From: an uncultured Alphaproteobacteria bacterium
Lineage (GTDB): Bacteria; Pseudomonadota; Alphaproteobacteria; UBA2966
DNA length: 64,000 nt
NCBI GenBank assembly: GCA_958295725.1
Contig: OY282368.1
Coordinates: forward strand, 186,001-250,000
Direction: 5' to 3'
In this document: piece by piece, positions 26,907 to 28,852 of the stretch
Layout: every line of letters begins with the position of its first letter
How positions within the stretch are numbered: the stretch's first letter is position 1
Notes under the pieces: generated by a model
Database searches by the model: none
Seen by the model: the letters and a program-made list of their open reading frames with translations, nothing else
Told to the model about the DNA's origin: nothing
Translations under genes and position numbers: made by a program

Positions 26907-27473
26907 TCAGACGGGATTCCTCGGATCGATCCAACCGATGTTGCCGTCTTCGCGTCGGTACACGACGCTCAGTCCGCCGTGCGCGCGATTACGGAACATG
27001 AGCACCGGAACGTTCGCGAGGTCGAGCCGCATCACGGCCTCACTGACCGTGACGGTCGGCACATCGGTGGTCGACTCGGCGACGATCACGGGTTGCGCGT
27101 CTTCCACGGCGTACTGACTTTCCTCTTCGCTGGACAAGACGTAGGTCGGCACCTCCACGATCTCGACCGGTGGTGTCTTGTGGTGATTTCTCAAGCGCCG
27201 CTTGTATCGCCGCAACCTCTTTTCCACGCGTTCTGCCGCGGCATCGAACCCGGCGTAGGCGTCGTCGGCGGAGGCGTGGGACTTGACATATATCCCCGCG
27301 CCGACATGTACCGAGCAATCCACGCGATGCAGGGGGCCTTCGCGAGAAAACACTATTTGGGCATCGATCGGGTTGCCAAAATACTTCTCGGTTCCTGCCG
27401 TAATTCTCTCTTCGACATGGGCTCGGAGCGTGTCGCCCACGTCTATCTGTTTTCCGGTCACGGTGATGTGCAT
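26907..27473 (-). CDS. hpf: Long-form ribosome hibernation promoting factor
   Basis: 188 residues with two domains. The N-terminal HPF/YfiA domain starts MHITVTGKQIDVGDTLRAHV and includes the basic helix AAERVEKRLRRYKRRLRNH. The C-terminal dimerisation domain covers VSEAVMRLDLANVPVLMFRN to the end. Long HPF dimerises 70S ribosomes into inactive 100S particles in stationary phase. ATG 27473 gives the conserved N-terminus; a 12-residue extension from 27509 is possible. In most proteobacteria this gene follows rpoN, but here the upstream neighbour is an IS remnant. Confidence 0.95.
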   Translation of the reverse strand: MHITVTGKQIDVGDTLRAHVEERITAGTEKYFGNPIDAQIVFSREGPLHRVDCSVHVGAGIYVKSHASADDAYAGFDAAAERVEKRLRRYKRRLRNHHKTPPVEIVEVPTYVLSSEEESQYAVEDAQPVIVAESTTDVPTVTVSEAVMRLDLANVPVLMFRNRAHGGLSVVYRREDGNIGWIDPRNPV

Positions 27474-27586
27474 GGATATCTCGTCCGGCCCGAGCACCGA
27501 TATGGGCATTCCGATTGCACGGCAAAATCCAGATCCGCGCGAGGCGGCGGGACACTAGGGGCAGGAATCATTTTCTGTCAACCGTC

Positions 27587-27991
27587 TGTCCTGGTTCAGG
27601 CCATGTGAGACGGAGGGGGTTCTCCGACTGTGTGTCTGGCAAGGTACTCGGCAGGGGTGTGTCCGTCGAGTGCCTGATGCGGTCTGAAGGTGTCGGACTC
27701 GTCGGCGAGGGCGTCGATCCATCGGTCGATGCGGTCGAGGTTGTCGTCGGGCAGGTCCCATGAGGCGTAGAACTCGTATCGCCATGCGCCGTTGTTGCGC
27801 TCGACGTGTCCGTTGAGCTTGGGCGATCGGGGCGGGAGTTCGAAGAGGTCGATGCGGCGGCGCCGGCATTCGGTCTCGAAGTCGGCCTTGAACTCGGAGC
27901 CTCCGTCGACCTGGATGGCTTGGATGGGGAAGGGCATGTCGGCCTGGAGCTTGTCGAGGAAGCGTTTGGCGTCGTATGCGCTGGCGCGGCG
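27587..27991 (-). pseudogene. 5'-truncated IS481 transposase with right terminus, occupying the usual rpoN position
   Basis: The right inverted repeat TGTCCTGGTTCAGGCCATG begins at 27587 and continues TGAGAC. The minus strand then encodes the last ~130 residues of the transposase, from RRASAYDAKRFLDKLQADM to PSHMA. Asp in QVDGGSEF and Glu in LNGHVERNN remain, but the first catalytic Asp and the HTH are gone. Homology stops at about 27991, 60 bp from the lptB stop. The fragment is inactive. Confidence 0.9.
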
Positions 27992-28051
27992 TCACGACCG
28001 GCGACCGGCCCCGCCGTAACTCCAGTTTCAGAGTCGATGTCATGAGGCGCT

Positions 28052-28852
28052 CTACAGACTGAATCGATCCCCGAGATACACGCGGCGCACATCCTCGTGC
28101 ACGACGATGTCGGACGGCGCGCCCTCCAGCAGCAACCGACCCTCGTGAAGGATGTACGCGCGATCGATGATGTCGAGGGTCTCCCGCACATTGTGATCCG
28201 TGATCAGCACGCCGATACCGCGGTCCTTGAGGTGGGATACAAGGTCGCGGATGTCGCCCACCGCGATCGGATCAATACCGGCCAGCGGTTCGTCGAGCAT
28301 CATGAAGTTCGGTCGCGTGGCCAGGGCGCGCGCGATTTCGACCCTGCGTCGCTCACCTCCCGACAACGCGACGGCCGGCGTTCTCCGTAGATGCGAAATC
28401 GAGAACTCACCGAGCAGATCATCAAGCATGGCTTCACGGGTGTCGCGTACGGGCTCGACGACCTCCAGGACGGCACGGATATTGTTCTCGACGGTCAACC
28501 CCCGGAATATGGACGCTTCCTGCGGCAGATATCCGATGCCCAGGCGCGCGCGCCGGTACATGGGCAAATCGGTGATATCACGACCGTCGAGGATGACTGC
28601 ACCGTAGTCGGGGAAAACCAGCCCTGTGATGATATGGAAGCAGGTCGTCTTGCCCGCACCGTTGGGACCCAGCAATCCGACTGCCTCGCCGCGCTGGACC
28701 GTCAGCGTGACGTCCCGCAGCACGGGGCGTTTCCTGAAGCGCTTGCCGATATTGCTGGCGAGCAGCCCCGGGTTGTCTGCCAGGAGTCGGGGCGACGCCG
28801 GGGCGGTTCCCGTCCCGTTGCCGTCGAGGAGAACGGATTGTTGATCGCACAT
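28052..28852 (-). CDS. lptB: LPS transport ATPase LptB
   Basis: 266 residues if it starts at ATG 28852. Walker A is GPNGAGKT, the ABC signature is LSGGERRRVEIARALA, Walker B is FMMLDEPLAGIDP and the switch His is in ITDHNVRET. LptB powers extraction of lipopolysaccharide from the inner membrane with LptF and LptG. A TTG at 28901-28903 is in frame and overlaps the lptA stop, and would give a longer, atypical N-terminus, so the ATG is preferred. It follows lptA and lptC as usual. Downstream, where rpoN is expected, there is an IS remnant. Confidence 0.96.
   Translation of the reverse strand: MCDQQSVLLDGNGTGTAPASPRLLADNPGLLASNIGKRFRKRPVLRDVTLTVQRGEAVGLLGPNGAGKTTCFHIITGLVFPDYGAVILDGRDITDLPMYRRARLGIGYLPQEASIFRGLTVENNIRAVLEVVEPVRDTREAMLDDLLGEFSISHLRRTPAVALSGGERRRVEIARALATRPNFMMLDEPLAGIDPIAVGDIRDLVSHLKDRGIGVLITDHNVRETLDIIDRAYILHEGRLLLEGAPSDIVVHEDVRRVYLGDRFSL

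What the first reader, a model, noticed from the sequence alone, without database searches (positions are those of the whole stretch)
26907..28852. rpoN is missing from the lptB-rpoN-hpf-ptsN block and an IS481 remnant sits in its place
The order kdsD-lptC-lptA-lptB-(rpoN)-hpf-ptsN is conserved across proteobacteria including E. coli. Here everything is present except rpoN. Between the lptB stop (28052) and the hpf start (27473) there are only 579 bp, and about 405 of these are a 5'-truncated IS481 transposase with its right end. An IS-mediated deletion of the sigma-54 gene is the simplest explanation. Loss would remove all sigma-54-dependent control (nitrogen assimilation, possibly motility) while keeping PtsN and HPF.
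Basis: partly seen in the sequence, partly recalled or inferred. Interest (0 to 1): 0.75.

Follow-up and report, generated by a model that had tools for sequence, protein, structure and literature searches.

The report
Bacterium that dismantled sigma-54 nitrogen control
This bacterium has deleted rpoN, the gene for the transcription factor sigma-54, leaving only its first 19 codons beside a broken transposable element, and has also lost key parts of the nitrogen-sensing circuit that sigma-54 would serve, so its nitrogen control likely runs without sigma-54.

Summary
The genome (3 contigs, completeness 100%) has no rpoN by profile or full-length protein search; 2 of 2 same-genus and 4 of 4 same-family genomes carry it after lptB. 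The first 19 rpoN codons survive, fused to the inside of an IS481-type element whose right end lies 5 bp upstream of a conserved TTGACA promoter of hpf. The element is itself cut on the rpoN side, which implies insertion first and deletion later; a transposase-made deletion is not shown.

rpoN is one of four lesions in one circuit: ntrB plus the NtrC receiver deleted; glnK plus most of amtB deleted; and the region upstream of glnB-glnA, with a sigma-54-like site in 6 of 6 relatives, replaced by a permease gene. NtrY-NtrX (no GAFTGA) and GlnB-GlnA remain. The NtrC remnant gained 41 amino-acid changes against 4 in sister G002. Three other metagenome protein clusters are receiver-less NtrC with altered GAFTGA loops and a better-kept DNA-binding end, hinting at reuse without sigma-54; this genome's own copy does not show that. 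rpoN loss is known elsewhere; the readable serial dismantling is the interesting part.

The parts
28052..28843 (-). lptB, intact (Pfam ABC_tran)
   Evidence: 86% protein identity to G001 and G002
27986..28043 (-). rpoN remnant: first 19 codons plus one base, 8 nt after the lptB stop; its last 3 nt could belong to either side of the junction
   Evidence: DNA alignment with rpoN starts of G001 and G002
27587..27988 (-). IS481-type element remnant: last 402 bp, left 737 bp missing, right end ...TGAACCAGGACA intact
   Evidence: 42 matching places in the genome, itself included, a lower bound as 40 of 180 candidates were scored; full copies mostly 1139-1140 bp
27596..27937 (-). 5'-truncated transposase frame (rve_3 domain)
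27582..27586 (-). 5 bp between IS end and -35 hexamer, the length of the element's target-site duplication
27576..27581 (-). predicted -35 hexamer TTGACA of the hpf promoter, identical in G001 and G002
27552..27557 (-). predicted -10 hexamer TAGTGT (TAATGT in G001), 18-bp spacer
26907..27473 (-). hpf, intact (Ribosomal_S30AE and C-terminal domain)
26412..26876 (-). ptsN, intact (PTS_EIIA_2)
3602..4741 (+). full-length copy of the same IS elsewhere in the window
   Evidence: C1:189602-190741

Best explanation
rpoN is deleted down to its first 19 codons, and ntrB, the NtrC receiver domain, glnK, most of amtB and the sigma-54-like glnBA promoter are gone as well, so the sigma-54 nitrogen circuit is likely dead and nitrogen control likely runs on the parts that need no sigma-54. 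Shown: an IS481-type element sits with its right end 5 bp upstream of the conserved TTGACA sequence ahead of hpf; a deletion joins rpoN codon 19 to position ~738 of that element; three further separate rearrangements hit the same circuit; NtrY-NtrX, GlnB-GlnA and GlnD/GlnE-type genes are kept. Inferred: the element inserted first, choosing the hpf promoter as it chooses other promoters; a later deletion by illegitimate recombination, with an end inside the element, removed rpoN and spared hpf-ptsN because their promoter lies outside the deletion; and once no promoter needed sigma-54, the NtrC remnant was freed from selection in this genome.
For: No rpoN in a 3-contig genome rated 100% complete; present in 14 of 14 other genomes of the same genus, family and order. 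rpoN stub and IS junction. ntrB and NtrC receiver: about 1.55 kb missing between dusB and the NtrC AAA domain. glnK-amtB: about 1.6 kb missing, amtB reduced to its last ~250-270 nt. P-II genes: 1 in this genome, 3 matches in each of 6 of 6 family members, the third weak or partial in 5 of them. Site TGGCAY-N6-TGCW upstream of glnB in 6 of 6 relatives, three at the 95% shuffle level (18.0) and three above the 99% level (19.5), while this genome's best is the shuffle median (15.5); homology to G002 stops 8 nt before the glnB ATG. NtrC remnant: 41 own amino-acid changes to 4 in G002, nine other genes pooled 211 to 117, Fisher P 1.4e-4, synonymous 31 to 33. Another record, P0018, 98% identical, has the same receiver-less start and a frameshifted end. 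NtrX, without GAFTGA in this genome, G001 and G002, changes like its neighbours: 31 to 13.
Against: The NtrC remnant still reads as an open frame with GAFTGA and Walker motifs, so it could still work. The rpoN junction itself was not found in another record. The order of the four events is not dated, and the microhomology at the rpoN junction is only a few bases. How many unrelated genes were lost in the same time was not measured, so the four losses might be part of general reduction (3.67 Mb against 4.1 and 4.3 Mb). glnK upstream regions of relatives gave no clear sigma-54 site in my scan, and the whole-genome pattern counts were hardly above control. The NtrY-NtrX and GlnB route of nitrogen control is inferred from gene content alone.
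Confidence: 0.86

Rival explanations
1. General genome reduction: the four lesions are ordinary losses in an IS-rich, shrinking genome and nothing singled out the sigma-54 circuit.
For: The genome is smaller than its same-genus relatives (3.67 against 4.1 and 4.3 Mb) and holds at least 40 places that match the IS; G001 gave no match among its 4 scored of 34 candidates, and G002 only matches of 69-89% identity among its 4 scored of 85. Nine other genes also show more own changes than G002 (211 to 117).
Against: Four separate lesions fall on one small circuit while NtrY-NtrX, GlnB-GlnA and GlnD/GlnE-type genes stay. The NtrC remnant is relaxed well beyond the other genes. The general loss rate was not measured, so this rival stays open.
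Confidence: 0.35
2. A transposase-made deletion: the IS itself excised or joined the flanks and took rpoN out.
For: An IS remnant lies exactly at the deletion.
Against: The IS is truncated on the deletion side and keeps only its far end; a transposase acting at an IS end would be expected to keep that end (recalled, not tested). The ntrBC junction has no room for an IS: 4 nt are unaligned there.
Confidence: 0.12
3. Assembly or binning artefact: rpoN exists in the cell but is missing from this assembly.
For: The rpoN junction was not seen in a second record.
Against: The deletion lies inside a 3.52-Mb contig, not at a contig edge. The stub has drifted from the sister sequences. The receiver-less NtrC start is seen in another record (P0018).
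Confidence: 0.03

Closest known systems
rpoN deletion in Campylobacter jejuni under laboratory evolution (PMC7677240; search listing and passages seen)
   Same: rpoN removed by deletion, with neighbouring sequence, in lineages where its regulon was not needed.
   Different: There the flagellar regulon was at stake and the deletion rose within a 35-day experiment; here the nitrogen circuit is taken apart by four separate events in a genome of the wild.
NtrC of Rhodobacter capsulatus and Caulobacter, without GAFTGA and acting on sigma-70 promoters (PMC10274813; search listing and passages seen)
   Same: NtrC freed from sigma-54, loop 1 altered; receiver-less relatives P0014, P0029 and P0061 have altered loops too.
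   Different: Those proteins keep the receiver and need its phosphorylation, and have deletions of the loop; here the receiver and ntrB are gone, and this genome's own copy still has GAFTGA.
rpoN-less lineages in general (PMC12316311; search listing and passages seen: near-complete absence in Actinomycetota, truncated RpoN in some Neisseria)
   Same: Bacteria that live without functional sigma-54.
   Different: Here the loss is recent enough to leave the stub, the scar and the half-decayed activator, with rpoN-bearing species in the same genus.
IS481-family insertion sequences (NCBIfam NF033577)
   Same: Best model for both the full transposase and the remnant.
   Different: Score below the model's cut-off (169 of 224 bits); strong preference for the position 5 bp upstream of a -35-like hexamer.

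Membership tests
sigma-54 (RpoN) | Sigma54_DBD domain PF04552 somewhere in the genome | tested here: not met
   0 matches in this genome; the same search rings in 4 of 14 control genomes (E. coli, B. subtilis, Caulobacter, Bacteroides)
sigma-54 (RpoN) | full-length RpoN protein | tested here: not met
   0 matches at E<=10 with the 518-aa G002 protein; only 19 codons remain
NtrC enhancer-binding protein | receiver domain PF00072 | tested here: not met
   absent from the 409-aa frame, present in NtrX; G001 and G002 NtrC carry the N-terminal part that is missing here, scored as PF00072 in P0012 and P0004 of the same group
NtrC enhancer-binding protein | AAA+ sigma-54 domain PF00158 with GAFTGA | tested here: met
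   1.5e-63; GAFTGA at residue 78 of P0003
NtrC enhancer-binding protein | Fis-type HTH PF02954 | tested here: met
   6.6e-13
sigma-70-acting NtrC of the Rhodobacter/Caulobacter kind | GAFTGA loop lost | tested here: not met
   this genome's copy keeps GAFTGA; P0014, P0029, P0061 have GAFAGA, GAFTDA, GALADA
sigma-70-acting NtrC of the Rhodobacter/Caulobacter kind | activates or represses sigma-70 promoters | not testable with these tools
   needs binding and transcription assays
IS481 family | IS481 transposase model NF033577 | tested here: inconclusive
   best model, 1.2e-49, but 169 bits against a cut-off of 224

The most novel reading that the evidence does not exclude
After sigma-54 was abandoned, this lineage's relatives turned NtrC into a receiver-less, sigma-54-free DNA-binding regulator: in P0014, P0029 and P0061 the sigma-54 contact loop has decayed (GAFAGA, GAFTDA, GALADA), and among these three and this genome's copy the DNA-binding end is better kept than the AAA part in 6 of 6 pairs, which is so in only 159 of 10,878 pairs of full-length NtrC.
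Probability: 0.35. Interest if true: 0.76.

Novelty: new variant of a known kind. Interest (0 to 1): 0.6.

Why it matters
It catches the loss of an alternative sigma factor while the scars are still readable: a stub of the gene, a half-decayed activator, and a target operon whose upstream region was swapped for a new one. That makes the question of how a cell can afford to lose a whole class of promoter directly testable by comparing close relatives. The receiver-less NtrC clusters may offer a natural series in which the sigma-54 contact loop is lost before the DNA-binding part.

Tried and rejected
A strict -24/-12 pattern search (TGGCACNNNNNTTGCW) over seven genomes gave 23 hits against 21 for the reversed control (G000 1 to 2, G001 3 to 5, G002 4 to 4, G003 6 to 3, G004 1 to 3, G005 6 to 2, G006 2 to 2), so whole-genome promoter counts were dropped. 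The upstream scan was given 14 of the 19 P-II places and parsed 11; it gave no clear site at glnK: 17.5 in G003 and G005 and 16.0 in G002, under the 95% shuffle level of 18.0, and in G001 17.5 at a doubtful distance. Its scoring weights were recalled, not derived, and its shuffle level comes from one 300-bp upstream stretch of G001. The search for the chimeric open frame that runs from the rpoN stub into the IS found two other proteins, neither with the rpoN start. The IS query gave no match in the glnK-amtB locus L250 or in the glnB locus L254. The ~160-nt filler at glnK-amtB stays unidentified. Literature on insertion sequences that target promoters was searched with (5 of 5 papers listed; 12 of 33; 10 of 114); no listed title or abstract start describes such a case, and no paper of these was opened. 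For joint loss of rpoN and the Ntr system I saw the listings (20 of 29; 10 of 11; 10 of 29; 12 of 21), with the same outcome.

In the relative-rate pool I left out the amtB remnant (8 to 2, one stop). In one search, P0018 (frameshifted), P0020, P0117 and P0146 (contigs of 1.4-2.3 kb, probably cut) were left out of the receiver-less pairs. The full-length set of 148 is taken from the best 120 of two capped search lists, not a random sample.

Full report
What is in the window. Reading the minus strand, lptB ends at 28052, hpf starts at 27473 and ptsN at 26876; all three are intact by Pfam. The 8 nt after the lptB stop are followed by ATGACATCGACTCTGAAACTGGAG..., which aligns with the rpoN starts of the two same-genus genomes G001 and G002 as far as codon 19 plus one base (28043-27986), with the same 8-nt spacing in both. 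From 27988 the sequence is the inside of a mobile element, and it runs to the element's right end at 27587. Then come 5 bp, TTGACA, 18 bp and TAGTGT, which are conserved in G001 and G002 just upstream of hpf. rpoN from codon 20 on, the 30 nt (G001) or 66 nt (G002) between rpoN and TTGACA (counted by eye) and the left 737 bp of the element are gone.

rpoN is absent from the genome. The genome is held as three contigs (3.52 Mb, 93 kb, 48 kb; completeness 100%, contamination 3). It has no PF04552 match and no match at E<=10 to the full 518-aa RpoN of G002. Of 61 genomes (itself included) 49 have rpoN, among them 2 of 2 others of the genus, 4 of 4 others of the family and 8 of 8 others of the order; of the 12 without, this genome and G036 (4.2 Mb) are the only ones above 3 Mb. 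rpoN follows lptB on the same strand in 77 of 80 related lptB loci, the best 80 of 533 confirmed. Loss in a genome of this size looks unusual but is not unique.

The rest of the circuit. (a) In G001 and G002 the order is dusB-ntrB-ntrC-ntrY-ntrX. Here about 1.55 kb is missing: the first bases of ntrB are joined to ntrC just before its AAA domain, so ntrB and the NtrC receiver are gone while PF00158, the lid and the Fis HTH remain. NtrX keeps receiver, AAA and HTH; it has no GAFTGA in this genome, G001 or G002. (b) In G001 and G002 glnK-amtB follows an amidase gene. Here about 1.6 kb is missing; glnK is gone and amtB is reduced to its last ~250-270 nt behind ~160 nt of unrelated sequence. P-II matches: 1 here, 3 in each of 6 of 6 family members; the third is weak or partial in 5 of them. 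Two other Amt/Rh genes remain. (c) Upstream of glnB-glnA, 6 of 6 relatives have TGGCAY-N6-TGCW at -51 to -121, scoring 18.0 (three) or 19.5 (three) against shuffle levels of 18.0 (95%) and 18.5 (99%). Here the best site scores 15.5, the shuffle median; homology to G002 ends 8 nt before the glnB ATG (13 nt for G001), and a 432-aa permease gene (PF00860) lies there instead. glnB and glnA are intact by Pfam, and there are PF08335 frames of 959, 996 and 1086 aa; calling the first GlnD and the others GlnE goes by score, length and domain number and is mine.

Consequences for NtrC. With G001 as third sequence, the NtrC remnant has 41 own amino-acid changes against 4 in G002, while nine other genes together have 211 against 117 (Fisher P 1.4e-4) and synonymous changes in ntrC are even, 31 to 33. 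The changes spread over AAA (25 of 235 sites), linker (7 of 27) and DNA-binding part (10 of 81), so in this genome the picture is plain relaxation. Another record, P0018, 98% identical over the stretch it shares, starts at the same methionine and has a frameshifted C-terminus. Three further clusters, P0014 (9 members), P0029 (4) and P0061 (24), on contigs of 11-18 kb, also start there, without a receiver. Their sigma-54 loop reads GAFAGA, GAFTDA and GALADA, while 141 of 148 full-length NtrC read GAFTGA and 7 have a single change. In the three, Walker B is unchanged, the Walker A lysine is kept and the HTH is nearly unchanged; P0014 has a changed WPGNVREL motif (SPGDVQEL). Among these three and this genome's copy, AAA is less alike than the DNA-binding part in 6 of 6 pairs; among full-length proteins that is so in 159 of 10,878 pairs. 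Compared with four full-length proteins (P0004, P0008, P0009, P0012), P0029 and P0061 show this in 4 of 4 and P0014 in 3 of 4, but this genome's copy in 0 of 4, which speaks against reuse here. Whether those genomes lack rpoN is not known; that is inferred from the loop.

The mobile element. Copies with both ends are mostly 1139-1140 bp (1138-1151 apart from three shortened ones), with a transposase whose best NCBIfam model is IS481, below its cut-off. The 5 bp left and right are the same in 17 of 25 copies with both ends (counted). Of 39 right flanks, 29 have TTG at +6 to +8, and T, A and T are enriched at +29, +30 and +34 (23, 28 and 24 of 39), a 17-bp-spaced promoter pattern; the TTG frequency in these loci is 0.008. 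Four distant copies in G079 have TTG there in 4 of 4; three in G002 that reach the right end have TTT, TTT and TTG. So the element likely lies upstream of hpf because it targets such sites, not because of rpoN. Its right end and the hpf promoter survived, and the deletion end lies inside it. That is why I call the deletion a later event that used or happened to hit the element, and do not call it transposase-made.

Setting. The order UBA2966 is reported as marine, and one member as belonging to the sponge Petrosia ficiformis community (PMC8879329, PMC8941161; passages seen). Where this genome comes from is not known to me; an ammonium-rich or host-associated habitat that makes nitrogen-stress control dispensable is a guess.

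Comparison with what is known. rpoN deletion has been watched in C. jejuni (PMC7677240, passages), and GAFTGA-less NtrC on sigma-70 promoters is known in Rhodobacter and Caulobacter, with receiver phosphorylation still needed (PMC10274813, passages). No title or abstract start in the listings (partial lists) describes serial loss of rpoN, ntrB, the NtrC receiver and glnK-amtB with replacement of the glnBA upstream region. The kind of event is known; the combination, and the receiver-less NtrC series, are the new part.

Noticed in passing
L030-L049, L213-L232; window 3602-4741 and 27587-27988: The IS481-type element inserts with its right end 5 bp upstream of a sigma-70-like promoter: TTG at +6..8 in 29 of 39 flanks and a TAnnnT pattern about 17 bp further; distant copies in G079 have the TTG in 4 of 4, in G002 1 of 3. 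A promoter-seeking insertion sequence would deserve its own study.
   Followed up: partly
P0014, P0029, P0061 (metagenome proteins): Receiver-less NtrC in three other protein clusters, with the sigma-54 loop altered and the DNA-binding end better kept than the AAA part.
   Followed up: partly
L250 8189-11355 (C1 about 3210188-3213354): Between the amidase and ubiH-like genes of the glnK locus lies an insertion with a 777-aa frame that looks like nitric oxide reductase NorB and a CRP/FNR-like gene (named by eye, not searched); these two genes are neighbours in G001 and G002.
   Followed up: no
G000:C1:1825394-1825786: A second GlnE-like frame of 1086 aa besides the 996-aa one; G002 also has two.
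   Followed up: no
L084, L111: Two other alphaproteobacterial lptB loci without rpoN or hpf in the 3.6 and 6.0 kb held downstream.
   Followed up: no
G036: A 4.2-Mb alphaproteobacterial genome, completeness 100%, without rpoN.
   Followed up: no
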